A stretch of 64,000 nucleotides of DNA, from contig NZ_CP083760.1 of NCBI RefSeq assembly GCF_020149915.1, positions 1,426,001 through 1,490,000 of the forward strand. The letters run 5' to 3'. A program made the position numbers and the translations under genes. The stretch comes from Candidatus Sulfidibacterium hydrothermale (GTDB lineage Bacteria; Bacteroidota; Bacteroidia; Bacteroidales; F082). Below the pieces are notes generated by a model, which ran no database searches, had not been told where the DNA came from, and saw only the letters and a program-made list of their open reading frames with translations. This document shows, piece after piece, positions 39,592 through 57,629 of this stretch (position 1 is the first letter of the stretch; the number at the start of each line of letters is the position of its first letter).

Positions 39592-40560
39592 CTATTCGAA
39601 GTATTTTCCCGGAACAAGATAATTTTGTACGTAATCGGTAATTCCCTCTTCCAGTGAAGTAAAAGGCCGGATAAAGCCTGCTACCCGCAGCTTTTGCATA
39701 TTGGCTTCAGTAAAATACTGGTATTTGTCCCGGATATCTTCAGGTGTGTCAATGAATTCAATTACCGGTTCTTTGTCCAGCGCGGCAAAAACAGCCCGGG
39801 CCAGATCCAGAAAAGTGCGGGCTTTGCCGGTTCCCAGATTGTACAATCCCGACGCCGGTTGTTGTTTCAGAAGAAATAAAATGACATCCGAAATGTCTTT
39901 TACATAAATAAAATCGCGGAGTTGTTCGCCATCTTTGAAATCCGGACGGTGCGAACGGAACAACCGAACCCTGCCATTGTCACGGATTTGATAAAAAGCA
40001 TGCAATATAACAGAAGCCATACGTCCTTTATGATACTCATCCGGGCCATAAACATTGAAAAATTTAAGCCCGGCCCAGAAAGGAGGTTGGTTTTCCTGCT
40101 TCAAAGCCCATTTGTCAAATTCATTTTTTGATATGCCGTAAGGATTTAATGGTTTCAGCTTTTCCACCACCTCGTGATTGTCATCGTATCCAAATTCACC
40201 ATTCCCATAAGTGGCAGCTGACGATGCGTAAATAAGCGGGATCTGGTATTTTGCACATCGCTCCCAGATTGCTTTGCTGTAGTTTAGGTTAAGCCGGTCG
40301 AAGATCCGCATGTCGAATTCAGTGGTGTCGGTTCGGGCTCCCAAATGGATAACCTGTTTCACTTCGCGGGCATGCTGGTCAAACCAATCAAAAAATTCAT
40401 CGCGATGAATATTCCGGATAAACTTTTTTGATTGCCAGTTTTTTTTCTTTTCAACGGACGAAAAATCATCCACAATTACAATATCTTCGTAACCGGCAAG
40501 GTTCAGCTTGTGCAAAACCACACTTCCAATAAAGCCGGCGGCTCCGGTAAGTACAATCAT
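39592..40560 (-). CDS. hldD: ADP-L-glycero-D-manno-heptose-6-epimerase
   Basis: NAD(P)-dependent short-chain dehydrogenase of 322 residues making the heptose donor for lipopolysaccharide core. The Rossmann motif TGAAGFIGS is near the N-terminus, the catalytic triad is visible (SSAAT and YGISKNEFD, i.e. Ser, Tyr and Lys), and the HldD-specific GARTDTTE, FNVYGPDEYHKG and QLRDFIYVKD segments support the specific call. The start at 40560 is chosen because the conserved MIVLTGAAGFIG begins there and a -7 box lies 21 bases upstream; the frame is open 24 codons further up. It is divergent from the pyrB leader. Confidence 0.9.
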   Translation of the reverse strand: MIVLTGAAGFIGSVVLHKLNLAGYEDIVIVDDFSSVEKKKNWQSKKFIRNIHRDEFFDWFDQHAREVKQVIHLGARTDTTEFDMRIFDRLNLNYSKAIWERCAKYQIPLIYASSAATYGNGEFGYDDNHEVVEKLKPLNPYGISKNEFDKWALKQENQPPFWAGLKFFNVYGPDEYHKGRMASVILHAFYQIRDNGRVRLFRSHRPDFKDGEQLRDFIYVKDISDVILFLLKQQPASGLYNLGTGKARTFLDLARAVFAALDKEPVIEFIDTPEDIRDKYQYFTEANMQKLRVAGFIRPFTSLEEGITDYVQNYLVPGKYFE

Positions 40561-40581
40561 AATTTCTTGTGTTTTGTAGGG

Positions 40582-40589
40582 CAAAAATA
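40582..40589 (-). promoter_or_regulatory. -7 box of hldD
   Basis: TATTTTTG on the minus strand, 21 bases upstream of the ATG at 40560. It supports that start. Confidence 0.5.
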
Positions 40590-40760
40590 CAATAAATGGA
40601 CGGGTTTTGATATTTCCGGAAGCATTATTCAACAGCCTGCCGTAGGAATTTTATATCCATAAACAGAAAATTTGGACAGGTCGCTATTCTGTTCCGGATT
40701 GTTGATAATATTGTCGACATCTTTTTCTGTGCAGAATGAAAAAGCTGTAGTCAATTGTCT

Positions 40761-40768
40761 TATTTTTG
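40761..40768 (+). promoter_or_regulatory. -7 box of the pyrBI leader transcript
   Basis: TATTTTTG, 20 bases before the leader-peptide ATG at 40789 and 142 bases before the pyrB ATG. The predicted leader transcript of about 135 nt contains the pause hairpin, U-rich tract and terminator described next. Confidence 0.55.
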
Positions 40769-40788
40769 TCTTTCGGTAACATAAAACG

Positions 40789-40914
40789 ATGTTAGCGAAA
40801 ACGCATTTCCTTTCAGATAGAATATACTTCCGCAACGGAAGAAAGCTTTTATTTTTTAGACGGTTTCTACCGTCTTTTTTTTTTGTTTTTCCATTTAAAT
40901 TTTTTAATTCATGA
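40789..40914 (+). CDS. pyrL: PyrL-like leader peptide of pyrBI
   Basis: A 41-codon ORF that starts 20 bases after a -7 box and ends in TGA overlapping the pyrB ATG (ATGA). It reads through both hairpins of the leader. The codon run 40846-40857 is CTT-TTA-TTT-TTT, and the C-terminal half of the peptide (LLFFRRFLPSFFFVF) is rich in Phe/Leu/Ser because its codons span the terminator and its U tract. This is the layout of enterobacterial pyrL, whose 44-codon leader is translated through the pyrBI attenuator. Known from Escherichia coli: high UTP lets polymerase outrun the ribosome and terminate. Here the peptide sequence is not similar to E. coli PyrL; only the architecture is. Translation has not been shown. 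Confidence 0.65.
   Translation: MLAKTHFLSDRIYFRNGRKLLFFRRFLPSFFFVFPFKFFNS
40827..40884 (+). promoter_or_regulatory. pyrBI attenuator: pause hairpin, U-rich tract and terminator
   Basis: Hairpin 1 is CTTCCG-CAA-CGGAAG (40827-40841). A U-rich stretch with only one A follows at 40846-40857. Hairpin 2 is AGACGG-TTTCTA-CCGTCT (40858-40875), followed by a run of eight to nine T. No other plus-strand gene ends nearby, because hldD is divergent, so the terminator can only serve the pyrB leader. The order pause hairpin, U-rich tract, terminator, together with the overlapping leader ORF, predicts UTP-sensitive transcription attenuation. A ribosome close behind polymerase would cover hairpin 2 and allow readthrough. 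Confidence 0.65.
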
Positions 40915-41831
40915 ATCGTTTAAAAAACCGAAGTCTGGTTTCTATTACCGATTACGGCAAAGAAGAGATCTTAAAAGTTCTTGACATTGCAGAAGGTTTT
41001 GAAGAAAACCAGCGACAGAAAATCCTTTCCGATTATGTGATTGCCTCTTTGTTTTTTGAGCCTTCCACCCGTACCCGTCTCAGTTTTGAGAGTGCCGTAC
41101 ATTATCTCGGGGGCAGTATTATTGGGTTTGCCAGCGCCGATACGTCCAGTGTGCGAAAGGGGGAATCATTAAAAGATACCATACTTACCGTGAGTAATTA
41201 TTCCGATCTGATTGTGATGCGCAATCCGTTAGACGGCAGTGCCCGCTTTGCCAGTGAAGTTTCACCGGTGCCGATCATCAATGCCGGCGACGGAGCCAAT
41301 CAGCATCCGACACAATGTTTGCTCGATTTGTATTCGATCCGGAAAACACAAGGAACCCTGGAGAATCTCCAGATTGCTTTGGTGGGCGATTTAAAATATG
41401 GCCGTACGGTACATTCGCTGGTACAGGCGCTGAGCCTTTTCGGTGCTACTTTTCATTTGGTTTCTCCCGAGTCGCTGAAACTTCCCAGCGGCGTGAAAAA
41501 GTGGATTAAAGATGCCGGACTGGAATACTTTCAGTATACCGAACTGGCCGATGTTATTCCTTTTGCCGACATTATTTACATGACGCGGATTCAGGGAGAA
41601 CGTTTTCCGGATCCGATGGAATATGAAAAGGTGAAAAATGCTTATGTGCTTGAAAATAAAATGCTTGAAAAGTCAAAAGAGAGTTTGCGTATTCTGCATC
41701 CGTTGCCGCGGGTGAACGAAATCAGCGAAGATGTGGATGATAATCCGAAAGCCTACTATTTTCAACAGGCCAAAAACGGGGTGTATGTTCGTCAGGCTTT
41801 GATTGCTGCTATTCTCGGATTAAAAGAATAG
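40911..41831 (+). CDS. pyrB: aspartate carbamoyltransferase, catalytic chain
   Basis: Makes carbamoyl-aspartate, the first committed step of pyrimidine synthesis. Length of 306 residues is normal. The carbamoyl-phosphate motif FFEPSTRTRLSFE, the 80s-loop lysine region (SSVRKGESLKDT), HPTQCLLDLY and the aspartate-binding RIQGERF and LHPLPRV are all present. The ATG at 40911 overlaps the stop of the leader ORF. The regulatory chain pyrI follows 83 bases downstream, indicating the E. coli-type dodecameric enzyme regulated by CTP and ATP. Confidence 0.97.
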   Translation: MNRLKNRSLVSITDYGKEEILKVLDIAEGFEENQRQKILSDYVIASLFFEPSTRTRLSFESAVHYLGGSIIGFASADTSSVRKGESLKDTILTVSNYSDLIVMRNPLDGSARFASEVSPVPIINAGDGANQHPTQCLLDLYSIRKTQGTLENLQIALVGDLKYGRTVHSLVQALSLFGATFHLVSPESLKLPSGVKKWIKDAGLEYFQYTELADVIPFADIIYMTRIQGERFPDPMEYEKVKNAYVLENKMLEKSKESLRILHPLPRVNEISEDVDDNPKAYYFQQAKNGVYVRQALIAAILGLKE

Positions 41832-41914: not shown

Positions 41915-42382
41915 ATGAAAAATAAAAGAACCGAATTAAAAGTACAGGCCATTCGTACCGGAACCGTAATCGACCATATTCAGGCCGAAAATACCTATCG
42001 TGTTTTTACCATGCTCAATTTGGAAAAAAGTACCGATCATGTTTATTTCGGAACCAATCTTGAAAGTAAAAAACTGGGGAAAAAAGGGATTATCAAAATC
42101 AGCAATAAATTTTTCGAACCGGAAGAAATCAGTAAAATTGCATTGGTAGCTCCGCATGCTACTCTTATTGAAATTCGTGATTATGAGATTATTAAAAAAC
42201 AGCAGGTGGAATTGCCACGAGAAGTGCACAACATTGTAAAGTGTGTAAATCCTAAATGTGTCACCAACAACCAGGAGGTACCTACCCAGTTTAAGATTAT
42301 TCGTGACCACCATGGCAAACTGAAGCTTCTCTGTCGCTATTGCGAAAAAACCATGAGTATGTCGGATGTTCAGTTTTTATAA
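41915..42382 (+). CDS. pyrI: aspartate carbamoyltransferase, regulatory chain
   Basis: Allosteric subunit that binds CTP/ATP and holds the catalytic trimers together. The 155 residues comprise the N-terminal nucleotide-binding domain (VQAIRTGTVIDHI, GTNLESKKLGKKGIIKI) and a C-terminal zinc domain with four cysteines in the order CVNPKC and CRYCEK. The length matches the family. It lies 83 bases after pyrB, with a small hairpin between them. Both subunits are thus expected to be controlled by the pyrL-type attenuator. Confidence 0.95.
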   Translation: MKNKRTELKVQAIRTGTVIDHIQAENTYRVFTMLNLEKSTDHVYFGTNLESKKLGKKGIIKISNKFFEPEEISKIALVAPHATLIEIRDYEIIKKQQVELPREVHNIVKCVNPKCVTNNQEVPTQFKIIRDHHGKLKLLCRYCEKTMSMSDVQFL

Positions 42383-42432: not shown

Positions 42433-43086
42433 GTGAAGTATTCCGGAAAACGTCATCCTGTCCTTCGCCTTATTGCACAAGGCGAAGGATTACATCTCGA
42501 TTTTAAATTTGAAATATCGGATGCGCCTAAAATTGCCCGGTCGTTATCGGCATTTGCCAATACCGAGGGCGGAACACTGTTGATTGGGGTAAAAGATAAT
42601 GGGAAAATTTCCGGAATCCGCTCGGAAGAAGAGTTTTACATGATACAAAATGCGGCCATGCGCTATTGTAAACCGGAAGTTTCTTTTCAATCGAAAGAAT
42701 GGCTTGTCGAAGGGAAAAAAGTGCTGGAGATTACGATTCCCAAAGGTTCCCGGCAGCCGTACAAAGCATCGGACAAACAAGGCCGTTACCGGGCTTATAT
42801 CCGAGTGAAAGATGAAAATATCCTGGCCGATGGTGTGCAGATGAAAATCTGGCAGCAGTTAAAAAGCCATAAAGAAATCCGGTTTATGAATAGTGCTGAA
42901 GAGCGGAATCTTCTTCAGTGTCTTGATGCCGATGAAATGCGGGCTTTGTCTTTTCTTAAAAAGCAATGCGGACTTTCTCCGTATAAAGTGGAAAAACTGC
43001 TTTCTGAATTTGTTCTGTTGGGATTGGTAGAAATGAAAACCACTACCGAAGACAGTTTCTTCTCATTGTGTACTTTATCTTCCTGA
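42433..43086 (+). CDS. AlbA_2 (Schlafen-type) domain protein, GTG start
   Basis: Predicted nucleic-acid-binding protein of 217 residues. The AlbA_2 signature is clear: GEGLHLDFKFEISDAPKIAR, then AFANTEGGTLLIGVKDNGKI. A conserved IPKGSRQPYKA segment follows. The C-terminal 70 residues look helical and may form a winged helix (SFLKKQCGLSPYKVEKLLSEF). AlbA_2 domains are found in putative transcriptional regulators and in some defence-related proteins; nothing else here suggests defence. The GTG at 42433 is the only good start before the domain, and a -7 box precedes it. Function unknown. Confidence 0.75.
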   Translation: MKYSGKRHPVLRLIAQGEGLHLDFKFEISDAPKIARSLSAFANTEGGTLLIGVKDNGKISGIRSEEEFYMIQNAAMRYCKPEVSFQSKEWLVEGKKVLEITIPKGSRQPYKASDKQGRYRAYIRVKDENILADGVQMKIWQQLKSHKEIRFMNSAEERNLLQCLDADEMRALSFLKKQCGLSPYKVEKLLSEFVLLGLVEMKTTTEDSFFSLCTLSS

Positions 43087-55105: not shown

Positions 55106-56410
55106 ATGGCAAAATTTGAAATTGTAATGCCCAAAATGGGCGAAGGGATTATTGAAGCAGCCATTACGAAATGGTTGAAAAGGGAAGGCGATCTTCTGGA
55201 AGAAGATGATGCCCTGGTGGAGATTGCCACCGACAAGGTCGATTCGGAAATTCCCAGTCCGACAGCGGGTAAGCTGACACAGATTCTTTTCGAAGAAGGA
55301 GCTGTTGTGCCGGTCGAAACAGTCATTGCTATTGTGGAAACCGAGGGGGAAGATGTACCGGAACCGGTTTCGGACGAAAGTAATGTGCCGGACAAGCCGG
55401 AAGAAGACAAGGAAACATCTGCCGGAAAAGAGAATGCCCGGAAATTATCAGAAAACCATCGTTTTTATTCGCCCCTGGTACGGAGCATGGCCCGAAATGA
55501 AAATATTTCGCCGGCGGAGTTAGATAATATTCCCGGAACGGGAAAAAATGGCCGGGTAACCAAAAGAGATGTGCTTGCTTATCTTGAAAACAGAAAAGGA
55601 ACAACGGCAAACCGTAGCCGGAAAATTTCAGCAGATGTTCCGGAGACGACAGAAAAAGAAGAAAAGGTGATTTCGTCCCTTCCTTCGGTTAATACCGATT
55701 CCGGGGACCAAGTTGTGGAGATGGACCGTATGCGCCGGTTAATTGCGGATCATATGATTCAGTCTAAACGGATTTCGGCCCATGTGACTTCTTTTATTGA
55801 TGTGGACGTCACTTCCATTGTAACCTGGCGAAACAAAGTGAAAAACGGTTTTTTGCAGCGTAATGGCGAGAAAATAACGTTTACTCCGGTTTTTATTGAT
55901 GCGGTGGCCAAGGCATTGCATGAGTTTCCGCAAATCAATGCTTCGGTAGATGGGTATAAAGTGATTTACCGGAAAAACATCAATATTGGCATGGCTACGG
56001 CACTTCCCAACGGAAATCTGATTGTGCCTGTTATTAAAAATGTAAACGAAAAGAGTCTTTTAGGCATTGTAAAAGCGGTAAACAGCCTGGCTCAAAAGGC
56101 CCGCCAAAATGCGCTTGTTCCGGATGAAATTCAAGGGGGAACTTTCACGGTAACCAATTTTGGCTCTTTTGACAGTTTAACCGGAACGCCCATAATCAAT
56201 CAGCCACAAGTGGCGATTCTTGGTGTCGGTGCTATCCGGAAAAAACCGGTGGTGCTGGAAACTTCGCAGGGAGATGTGATTGCCATCCGGCACATCATGA
56301 TTCTTTCACTGGCTTATGATCATCGTATAGTAGATGGTGCACTTGGTGGCTTGTTTCTGAAGCGGTTGAAAGAAATTCTCGAAAACTGGGATGTAAACAC
56401 AGAAATTTAA
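55106..56410 (+). CDS. dihydrolipoyl acyltransferase (E2 of a 2-oxoacid dehydrogenase)
   Basis: Core enzyme of a pyruvate or branched-chain oxoacid dehydrogenase complex, 434 residues. One lipoyl domain with the lipoylated lysine in ATDKVDSEIP, an E1/E3-binding domain (FYSPLVRSMARNENI, GRVTKRDVLAYLE) and the catalytic domain ending with DHRIVDGALGG, where the histidine is catalytic. Linkers are rich in Pro, Glu and Ala. No E1 or E3 gene is adjacent, so which complex it serves is open; the branched-chain type is favoured by the single lipoyl domain and sequence flavour. Confidence 0.9.
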   Translation: MAKFEIVMPKMGEGIIEAAITKWLKREGDLLEEDDALVEIATDKVDSEIPSPTAGKLTQILFEEGAVVPVETVIAIVETEGEDVPEPVSDESNVPDKPEEDKETSAGKENARKLSENHRFYSPLVRSMARNENISPAELDNIPGTGKNGRVTKRDVLAYLENRKGTTANRSRKISADVPETTEKEEKVISSLPSVNTDSGDQVVEMDRMRRLIADHMIQSKRISAHVTSFIDVDVTSIVTWRNKVKNGFLQRNGEKITFTPVFIDAVAKALHEFPQINASVDGYKVIYRKNINIGMATALPNGNLIVPVIKNVNEKSLLGIVKAVNSLAQKARQNALVPDEIQGGTFTVTNFGSFDSLTGTPIINQPQVAILGVGAIRKKPVVLETSQGDVIAIRHIMILSLAYDHRIVDGALGGLFLKRLKEILENWDVNTEI

Positions 56411-56496
56411 TCCGGCATACTTTTTAACTCAACTTTTGCAGGTTTATTTTCTCAAAGGCAAGGTTGTAAGTTGTGGGTAGGCCTACCGAAACGGCG

Positions 56497-56527
56497 GGCC
56501 TGCCCGACTACGTCATTCAGGCGGGCT
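56497..56527. repeat. 31-base palindromic motif, copy 2
   Basis: Same as 45373-45403 except for two transitions (GGCCTGCCCGACTACG at the start, CAGGCGGGCT at the end). It begins a longer structured island ending at 56699. Confidence 0.75.
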
Positions 56528-56541
56528 GGCGAGAGAGTGAA

Positions 56542-56631
56542 TGCCGAAAAGTTTACAGCATCGTGCAAAAGTGCTTGCATTTCTCTTGTGTGAGCAAGAG
56601 ACTCTTTTGCCGGAGATGTTGCTTTTCGGCA
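56542..56631. repeat. 90-base nested hairpin
   Basis: A four-tier inverted repeat: TGCCGAAAAG (56542-56551) with CTTTTCGGCA (56622-56631); CATC (56559-56562) with GATG (56615-56618); GCAAAAG (56565-56571) with CTTTTGC (56604-56610); and a terminal stem CTCTTG (56583-56588) with CAAGAG (56595-56600). All tiers are in register. It could be a structured RNA, a REP/MITE-like element, or a fold in the DNA. Confidence 0.65.
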
Positions 56632-56669
56632 GAGTGGGAAGAAGCATTCGTTTCGGTGCGTCTTCTTTG

Positions 56670-56699
56670 GTTCCTTTCTTGACGAGACAAGAAAGGAAC
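56670..56699. repeat. 12-bp perfect hairpin
   Basis: GTTCCTTTCTTG - ACGAGA - CAAGAAAGGAAC. It is not followed by a T tract. It closes the palindromic island upstream of lolD. Confidence 0.7.
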
Positions 56700-56961
56700 A
56701 GAAAACACTTCAAAAATTCTTTTTCACTTAAAGTAAAAAGCAATTTTACCTGGAATTAATGAATGTCATTAAAAAGTAAAATGATTACTACGATATCTGA
56801 ATAAATAGAGCATAGAATATCAATAGATTCCGTTTTATTAAACTTTGCAAAGTTTTTGCGTTTAACATCTTATCAAGCTTGTAAAGGTTAAATTTTTAAC
56901 AGAGAGCTGGGGTACTTTCTTTAAAAGGAAAAAGGAGAAGAACCGAATTCATTAGTTTTCC

Positions 56962-56969
56962 TATCTTTG
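56962..56969 (+). promoter_or_regulatory. -7 box directly before lolD
   Basis: TATCTTTG ends six bases before the ATG at 56976, predicting an mRNA with practically no leader. Confidence 0.5.
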
Positions 56970-56975
56970 CTGATT

Positions 56976-57629
56976 ATGGTTTTGGCAGAGAATATTCATA
57001 AATCGTACGGTCAGGTAGAAGTCCTGAAAGGGGTTGACCTGCAGGTAAATGAGCAGGAGATTGTCTCCATTGCCGGTGCTTCCGGAGCAGGAAAATCCAC
57101 TTTACTGCAGATCTTGGGAACCATTGAAAAACCGGACAAAGGAAACGTTTTACTTGACGGAGTCAATGTGAGTACCTTAAATGATAAAGCCTTGTCGAAA
57201 TTCCGGAATGAAAAAATAGGCTTTGTCTTTCAGTTTCATCATTTGCTGCCGGAGTTTACTGCACTTGAAAACATTTGTATCCCGGGATTTATTGCCGGGA
57301 AAAGCCGGAAAGAAGCCGAAAAGAGAGCTTATGCTTTGCTGGATTTTATCGGGTTGAAAGAAAGAGCAGCGCATAAACCGGCTGAATTGTCTGGTGGTGA
57401 ACAGCAGCGTGTTGCCGTTGCCCGTGCGCTGATGAATAATCCTTCGGTGGTGTTTGCCGATGAACCTTCCGGTAATCTTGATTCCAAAGCTTCTGAAGCT
57501 TTGCATGAGTTATTTTTTGACTTAAGAAAAAACTTCGGACAGACTTTTGTGATTGTTACCCATAACAAAGAACTGGCTGCCAAAGCCGACCGGCAATTTT
57601 TTATCCGGGACGGAATGATTACAAAATAA
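56976..57629 (+). CDS. lolD: LolD/MacB-type ABC transporter ATPase
   Basis: ATPase of 217 residues that would energise lipoprotein release to the outer membrane. Walker A is GASGAGKST, the signature LSGGEQQRV, Walker [10 protein letters not shown], and the H-loop is TH in VTHNKE. The region [13 protein letters not shown] is typical of LolD. The permease (LolC/E-type) is not next to it; a TPR protein follows instead. The start at 56976 is fixed by conserved [14 protein letters not shown]; the frame opens three codons earlier inside the promoter box. MacB-type efflux is the alternative role. Confidence 0.87.

What the first reader, a model, noticed from the sequence alone, without database searches (positions are those of the whole stretch)
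40761..40914. PyrL-type UTP-sensitive attenuator in a Bacteroidota pyrBI operon
Seen: a -7 box, then a 41-codon leader ORF (40789-40914), a pause-like hairpin (40827-40841), a U-rich stretch (40846-40857), a terminator-like hairpin with a U tract (40858-40884), and an ATGA overlap of the leader stop with the pyrB start. Known: this is the arrangement of E. coli pyrBI attenuation, where UTP levels set polymerase-ribosome coupling. Inferred: independent or ancient occurrence of the same control logic in Bacteroidota, where I know of no description. The peptide is dissimilar to PyrL, so convergence is plausible. The ATGA overlap adds possible translational coupling.
Basis: partly seen in the sequence, partly recalled or inferred. 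Interest (0 to 1): 0.78.

Follow-up and report, generated by a model that had tools for sequence, protein, structure and literature searches.

The report
Leader-ORF attenuator before Bacteroidales pyrBI
In front of the pyrimidine genes pyrBI of this Bacteroidales bacterium lies a short, apparently translated leader with a pause-type hairpin, a run of U and a terminator, which probably switches the genes on when UTP is scarce, as in E. coli but with an unrelated leader peptide.

Summary
In detail: a TATTTTTG box, a 41-codon ORF, a hairpin, a U-tract, an intrinsic terminator inside the ORF, then pyrB and pyrI. By automatic criteria the layout recurs at 65 of 71 fetched pyrB loci of the window's family and 10 of 68 from other Bacteroidales families. 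In 45 leader clusters under 70% identity the ATG frame reaches the terminator stem in 35; the other two frames in 2 and 8. The peptide is not conserved (16-35% identity where PyrB is 85-92%) and the stem is read in all three frames, so translation itself seems selected. U peaks 11-12 nt after the second hairpin (0 of 2000 permutations as high); E. coli pyrL and the window both have their main U-run from +11. PyrR is over cut-off in 0 of 149 Bacteroidales against 107 of 119 genomes sampled from the class. Best reading: a ribosome-relieved, UTP-paced attenuator that works like E. coli pyrBI but is not a demonstrable PyrL homologue. UTP dependence is inferred; I had no expression data. I found no description in the searches listed.

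The parts
40761..40768 (+). TATTTTTG, Bacteroidota -7 box (TAnnTTTG)
   Evidence: consensus as in PMC7366714 passages
40771..40800 (+). P1: 5'-terminal hairpin, arms 40771-40782 / 40789-40800, one internal G.G mismatch; leader ATG lies in the 3' arm
   Evidence: fold; 96.3% of cells paired in 9 leaders, one UA-CG double change; paired 5' arms recur in other leaders
40789..40914 (+). leader ORF, 41 codons, runs through P2, U-tract and terminator; stop overlaps pyrB start
   Evidence: frame counts
40827..40841 (+). P2: pause-type hairpin CTTCCGCAACGGAAG
   Evidence: 3 of 6 pairs with changes on both sides in 9 leaders; P2 stability versus shuffles
40847..40857 (+). U-tract TTTTATTTTTT; the T6 lies at +11 to +16 from the base of P2
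   Evidence: U peak at +11/+12 in 36 leader clusters; E. coli pyrL U-run at +11
40858..40884 (+). intrinsic terminator: 7-bp stem and T run
   Evidence: 100% paired in 9 leaders
40911..41831 (+). pyrB, aspartate carbamoyltransferase catalytic chain
   Evidence: TIGR00670 369.5 bits; 50% identical to E. coli PyrB
41915..42382 (+). pyrI, aspartate carbamoyltransferase regulatory chain
   Evidence: TIGR00240 161.5 bits; 35% identical to E. coli PyrI

Best explanation
A ribosome-relieved, UTP-paced transcription attenuator of pyrBI. Transcription starts just downstream of the -7 box (inferred) and P1 forms at the 5' end. A ribosome starts the leader ORF at the ATG in or beside P1. RNA polymerase makes P2 and, with P2 at its RNA exit, adds a run of U 11-16 nt beyond P2. 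When UTP is low it pauses there and the ribosome closes up. The ribosome then covers the 5' arm of the terminator, the hairpin cannot form, and pyrBI is transcribed. When UTP is high the polymerase runs ahead, the terminator forms and transcription stops. Sequence evidence supports selection for an open frame through the terminator, the P2 and terminator hairpins, and U at pause distance. The pausing, its UTP dependence, the start site and the role of P1 (perhaps delaying ribosome loading) are inferred. The leader stop near the pyrB start may add reinitiation; this is weak.
For: (1) Open frame: of 232 distinct pyrB upstream regions, 103 have box, ATG within 45 nt and terminator. They form 45 clusters under 70% identity; the ATG frame reaches the stem in 35, frames +1 and +2 in 2 and 8; if stops up to 16 nt before the stem are allowed, 43 against 4 and 16. 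In the 37 clusters used for the later profiles it is 33 against 1 and 6. (2) The peptide is not conserved: 16-35% identity to the window's leader in 8 relatives whose PyrB is 85-92% identical; the stem core is read in all three frames (19, 10 and 8 of 37). (3) U at +10 to +12 from the base of P2: 62% against 42% with permuted spacing, 0 of 2000 as high, while A does not rise; 57% against 34% in dinucleotide shuffles, 0 of 150, and P2 mean energy -5.1 against -3.0, 0 of 150, with a slightly stricter hairpin rule. (4) In family f22, whose fetched loci with a leader have 43-51% GC, a run of at least 4 U starts at +8 to +12 in 7 of 8 leaders; E. coli pyrL: +11. (5) Base pairs change on both sides in P1, P2 and terminator: 9 cells against 3.4 shuffled, 0 of 500. 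(6) PyrR over the cut-off in 0 of 149 genomes of the order and 107 of 119 of the class sample.
Against: No RNA, reporter or pausing data. P2 is weak or absent in some clusters (L066, L067, L119, L165) and the U-run is poor in others (for example L043, L044, L047, L129, L147, L231, L313). Single-leader fold scores are modest: P1 mean z -0.62 and P2 -0.89 over 39 clusters, p at or below 0.05 in 6 each. The leader is patchy: 10 of 68 loci fetched from other families of the order met the automatic criteria, and of those L185 lies behind a co-directional gene and L188 and L026 look atypical by eye, so most of the sampled families do without it. In 6 of 71 loci of the window's own family it was not called: 3 'no terminator' (at least L173 is a miss of my detector), 1 early stop, 1 without ATG, 1 contig too short. 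U is generally higher near the stem, which the permutation control answers only in part. The two clusters that fail it (L029, L069) are the two I later set aside as upstream coding sequence. Clusters are not phylogenetically independent.
Confidence: 0.74

Rival explanations
1. A ribosome-availability (growth-rate) attenuator: translation of the leader opens the terminator, but nothing senses UTP; readthrough follows how often ribosomes load, as recalled for E. coli ampC.
For: Frame openness and terminator overlap fit equally well. P1 holds or abuts the start codon, so ribosome loading could be the limiting step. U-run weak in several leaders.
Against: U rises at the hairpin-pause distance more than spacing permutation and shuffles allow, while A does not; same register as E. 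coli pyrL.
Confidence: 0.15
2. A protein- or ligand-dependent attenuator (PyrR type or riboswitch) in which the RNA folds, not translation, decide; the ORF is incidental.
For: Three hairpins before the gene, and PyrR control of pyr operons is common elsewhere (recalled).
Against: An incidental frame would not be open in 35 of 45 clusters against 2 and 8. No PyrR over the cut-off in this genome or in 149 of the order. No Rfam match in the window. The minimum-energy fold keeps the terminator without a competing partner.
Confidence: 0.04
3. Amino-acid or nascent-peptide dependent attenuation: the ribosome stalls at particular codons or by its own peptide.
For: Leader ORF with terminator is also the plan of his and trp leaders (recalled).
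Against: The peptide is not conserved and the stem is read in all three frames; no shared codon run seen by eye in the translations.
Confidence: 0.03
4. An ordinary terminator, for instance of a short RNA or of upstream transcription, with a chance ORF; pyrB has its own promoter downstream.
For: In other families a terminator often lies before pyrB without a box in the leader position (28 of 68); by eye many of these follow a co-directional gene.
Against: Here the upstream gene (heptose epimerase, 39592-40632) is on the minus strand, so the leader promoter is the only evident source of transcripts reaching this terminator. Frame test and pause geometry. Only 26 nt lie between the T run and pyrB.
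Confidence: 0.04

Closest known systems
E. coli pyrBI attenuator with leader peptide PyrL (K-12, L286)
   Same: Immediately upstream of pyrBI; leader ORF through an intrinsic terminator; pause-type hairpin followed by a U-run at +11; ATG to stem 88 nt (69 here).
   Different: Leader peptide unrelated (18% identity); Bacteroidota -7 box; 5'-terminal hairpin P1 with the start codon in it or beside it, which I did not look for in E. coli; U-tract directly abuts the stem here; leader stop overlaps pyrB here and lies 3 nt before it in E. coli.
pyrR-pyrB arrangement of other Bacteroidia
   Same: Same enzyme step, same class.
   Different: PyrB of another branch: 25 of 26 compared loci are 33-39% identical to E. 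coli PyrB, one 44% (L260), against 50-54% for window, L227 and L257-L259; PyrR gene next to pyrB in pairs I compared, e.g. G395 and G389.
Short leader ORFs reported in B. thetaiotaomicron 5' UTRs (PMC7366714, passages)
   Same: Authors call some sORFs reminiscent of attenuation leader peptides.
   Different: The passages seen name no pyr biosynthesis gene; the supplement with the list was not read.

Membership tests
enteric pyrBI (PyrL) UTP-sensitive attenuator | lies directly upstream of pyrBI | tested here: met
enteric pyrBI (PyrL) UTP-sensitive attenuator | leader ORF running into the terminator, conserved | tested here: met
   35 of 45 clusters against 2 and 8 in the other frames; translation itself not measured
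enteric pyrBI (PyrL) UTP-sensitive attenuator | pause hairpin followed by U-rich pause region | tested here: met
   sequence only, no pausing assay
enteric pyrBI (PyrL) UTP-sensitive attenuator | intrinsic terminator just before pyrB | tested here: met
enteric pyrBI (PyrL) UTP-sensitive attenuator | leader peptide homologous to PyrL | tested here: not met
   18% identity in a global alignment
enteric pyrBI (PyrL) UTP-sensitive attenuator | readthrough rises when UTP falls, and needs translation | not testable with these tools
   needs reporter and Term-seq
enteric pyrBI (PyrL) UTP-sensitive attenuator | UTP-sensitive reiterative initiation at the promoter (recalled) | not tested
   start site not mapped
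PyrR-dependent attenuator | PyrR protein present | tested here: not met
   NF003549: best 20.2 bits, cut-off 138; 0 of 149 in the order over cut-off
amino-acid leader-peptide attenuator | conserved regulatory codons in the leader | tested here: not met
   peptide identity 16-35% to the window's leader in 8 relatives; translations read by eye
any Rfam family | covariance-model match at gathering score | tested here: not met
   0 matches in the window

The most novel reading that the evidence does not exclude
Bacteroidales, having no PyrR and an E. coli-like PyrBI in place of the PyrR-linked PyrB of their class, arrived independently at a UTP-paced, ribosome-relieved attenuator with the same pause geometry as E. 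coli, and added a second gate: a 5'-terminal hairpin around or beside the leader start codon, which in one geometry lies only a few nucleotides from the presumed 5' end, and which sets when the first ribosome loads. The carA transcript of the same genome may share such a 5' hairpin. If so, transcription and translation must run coupled in this phylum, which does not rely on Shine-Dalgarno sequences (recalled).
Probability: 0.25. Interest if true: 0.8.

Novelty: new variant of a known kind. Interest (0 to 1): 0.62.

Why it matters
[quoted passage not shown] It also points to a regulator swap within one class: PyrR with pyrB in most sampled genomes of Bacteroidia outside Bacteroidales, leader attenuation with pyrBI in part of Bacteroidales. 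The shared hairpin-to-U spacing in two phyla turns the pyrBI pause into a comparative, testable rule.

Tried and rejected
Rfam scan of the window: nothing. Sigma-70 promoter scan: not suited to this phylum, no excess. A conserved leader peptide: rejected. PyrR control: rejected. Translational coupling: modest only; the first stop after the stem lies within 30 nt of the pyrB start in 26 of 33 for the leader frame, 19 of 37 in each of the others; exact ATGA overlap in 7 of 33, 0 of 37 and 3 of 37. Covariation in family f22: one P2 pair with changes on both sides, 48 of 500 shuffles as high on the score, so inconclusive there. Other leaders of this kind in the genome: none convincing in the sample scanned, about 14% of it. 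carA: no leader ORF or terminator seen by eye upstream. A covariance-model search was not made, because I judged the leaders too divergent for one model. Alignment A3 was made but its pairs were not counted. Rows dropped: 129 of 232 upstream regions without the constellation are not in the frame counts. For fold and U-profile work, of the 45 clusters six with ATG-to-stem under 60 nt (L026, L039, L098, L158, L185, L188) and two judged to lie in upstream coding sequence (L029, L069) were left out, giving 37; 36 of them had a hairpin. One search left out only the six, so its 39 include L029 and L069.

Literature: listings (PMC open library only); passages seen in PMC4824070, PMC5021804, PMC4833913, PMC7366714, PMC9291695. 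None of what I saw describes a pyrB leader attenuator in Bacteroidota. The original pyrBI papers and reviews were not read; what I say of their mechanism beyond those passages is recalled.

Full report
What is in the window. The operon is pyrB-pyrI by curated models, PyrB 50% and PyrI 35% identical to the E. coli chains. The gene upstream, a heptose epimerase, points the other way, so the leader promoter is the only evident source of transcripts meeting this terminator. Folding shows a further strong hairpin, P1, at the presumed 5' end, 40771-40800, with the leader ATG inside its 3' arm. The distance from the -7 box to P1 suggests that the transcript begins with P1; the start site itself is inferred.

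Comparative set. I searched pyrB in 149 genomes of the order, 173 of the family, 3, 56, 7 and 9 genomes of four other families, 119 of the class and the named genome collection (best 80 loci kept of 575). I fetched upstream DNA from a part. By the automatic criteria the leader is present at 65 of 71 fetched loci (70 genomes) of the window's family, 10 of 68 from other families of the order, 17 of 30 in family f106, 6 of 9 in f22, 6 of 6 in f69. These counts are rough both ways: L173, L314 and L317, called negative, show the leader by eye, while L185 among the ten sits behind a co-directional gene and L026 and L188 look atypical. In many of the other families pyrB follows a co-directional gene with an ordinary terminator (by eye).

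Is the ORF real? Among 103 regions with box, ATG and terminator, chosen without regard to openness, the ATG frame reaches the stem in 89, the other frames in 3 and 21. In the 45 clusters under 70% identity it is 35 against 2 and 8; counting stops up to 16 nt before the stem, 43 against 4 and 16. The peptides are not conserved, and the stem core is read in all three frames (19, 10, 8 of 37). So what is kept is that a ribosome can run through or up to the terminator.

Is there a pause site? I took the most stable hairpin between ATG+15 and the stem, blind to U content, in 36 clusters. Counting from its 3' base, U is 63% at +11 and 75% at +12, against 19-28% at +1 to +3. For +10 to +12 it is 62% against 42% when the hairpin-to-stem spacings are permuted among leaders (0 of 2000 as high), with no rise of A. 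With dinucleotide-shuffled leaders it is 57% against 34% (0 of 150), and real hairpins are more stable than shuffled ones (0 of 150). In family f22, less AT-rich, the hairpin core is followed by a U-run starting at +8 to +12 in 7 of 8 leaders; L313 has none. E. coli pyrL has its U-run at +11, hairpin 32 nt after the ATG and stem 88 nt after it. In the window the T6 is at +11 to +16. This spacing is what I recall for hairpin-stabilised pauses; a pause there would be waiting for UTP. That is the strongest sequence argument for UTP sensing, and it is still only sequence.

Structures. In nine leaders of the window's group, 94.9% of cells pair; 9 cells have changes on both sides against 3.4 in shuffles (0 of 500), with three of the six P2 pairs among those affected. 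Sliding the partners drops pairing to 35-55%. P1 recurs with different paired arms, for example CTGAA/TTCAG, CTGAT/ATCAG, CTAGA/TCTAG, TTGAT/ATCAA: 27 of 67 leaders of one geometry pair perfectly over five positions, and the mean match is 4.3 against 3.7 for shuffles. In some leaders P1 lies wholly before the ATG (L108, L179, L182, by eye), so its constant feature is the 5'-terminal place, not the burial of the start codon. Fold scores of single leaders are modest. The role of P1 is unknown; delaying ribosome loading, holding the polymerase early, or protecting the 5' end are all possible.

Evolutionary setting. PyrR scores over the cut-off in 0 of 149 genomes of the order and in 107 of 119 of the class sample, which includes 4 members of the order. 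In compared cases pyrR ends just before pyrB (for example G395: pyrR 55538-56071, pyrB 56088-56984). PyrB in 25 of 26 compared class loci (L260-L285) is 33-39% identical to E. coli PyrB, one is 44% (L260), against 50-54% for the window, L227 and L257-L259. So this order differs from its class in both enzyme type and, at least in part, regulator. Whether the attenuator came with an ancestral pyrBI or arose anew cannot be said from these data: I made no gene tree, and the leader peptide shows no similarity to PyrL.

Verdict. The element most likely works like the E. coli pyrBI attenuator: translation through the leader prevents termination when the polymerase is held in the U-tract by scarce UTP. 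The translated-terminator part I hold at about 0.9, UTP pacing on top of it at about 0.74. It is not filed as a PyrL homologue, because peptide homology was tested and not met. It is a new variant of a known kind: other phylum, other peptide, and a 5'-terminal hairpin at the leader start.

Noticed in passing
L322:2540-2660 (minus strand), upstream of carA of the same genome: A TATCTTTG box is followed by a hairpin CCCGGAAC...GTTCCGGG, resembling the 5' end CCCGGTAACAT...ATGTTAACGG of some pyrB leaders, but with no leader ORF or terminator seen (by eye). It may be a shared 5' element of pyrimidine genes.
   Followed up: partly
L247-L256 (family f106): In eight of these ten loci a terminator is called but no -7 box in the usual place; L252 has a 44-codon ORF through the terminator. 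Possibly a different leader geometry or a non-ATG start.
   Followed up: no
L036, upstream of pyrB: Leader ATG beside a 5' hairpin and a through-going ORF are seen by eye, but the terminator hairpin is poor: perhaps a decaying attenuator.
   Followed up: no
42433-43086: A Schlafen AlbA_2 domain protein (PF04326) follows pyrI by 50 nt on the same strand.
   Followed up: no
L129, L130: Two close relatives where one leader starts with ATG GTG and the other apparently with GTG, the frame otherwise kept to 5 nt before the stem (by eye).
   Followed up: no
L222-L224: In two other families the leaders begin M(K/R)Q...KY..L.F, more alike in peptide than elsewhere (by eye).
   Followed up: no
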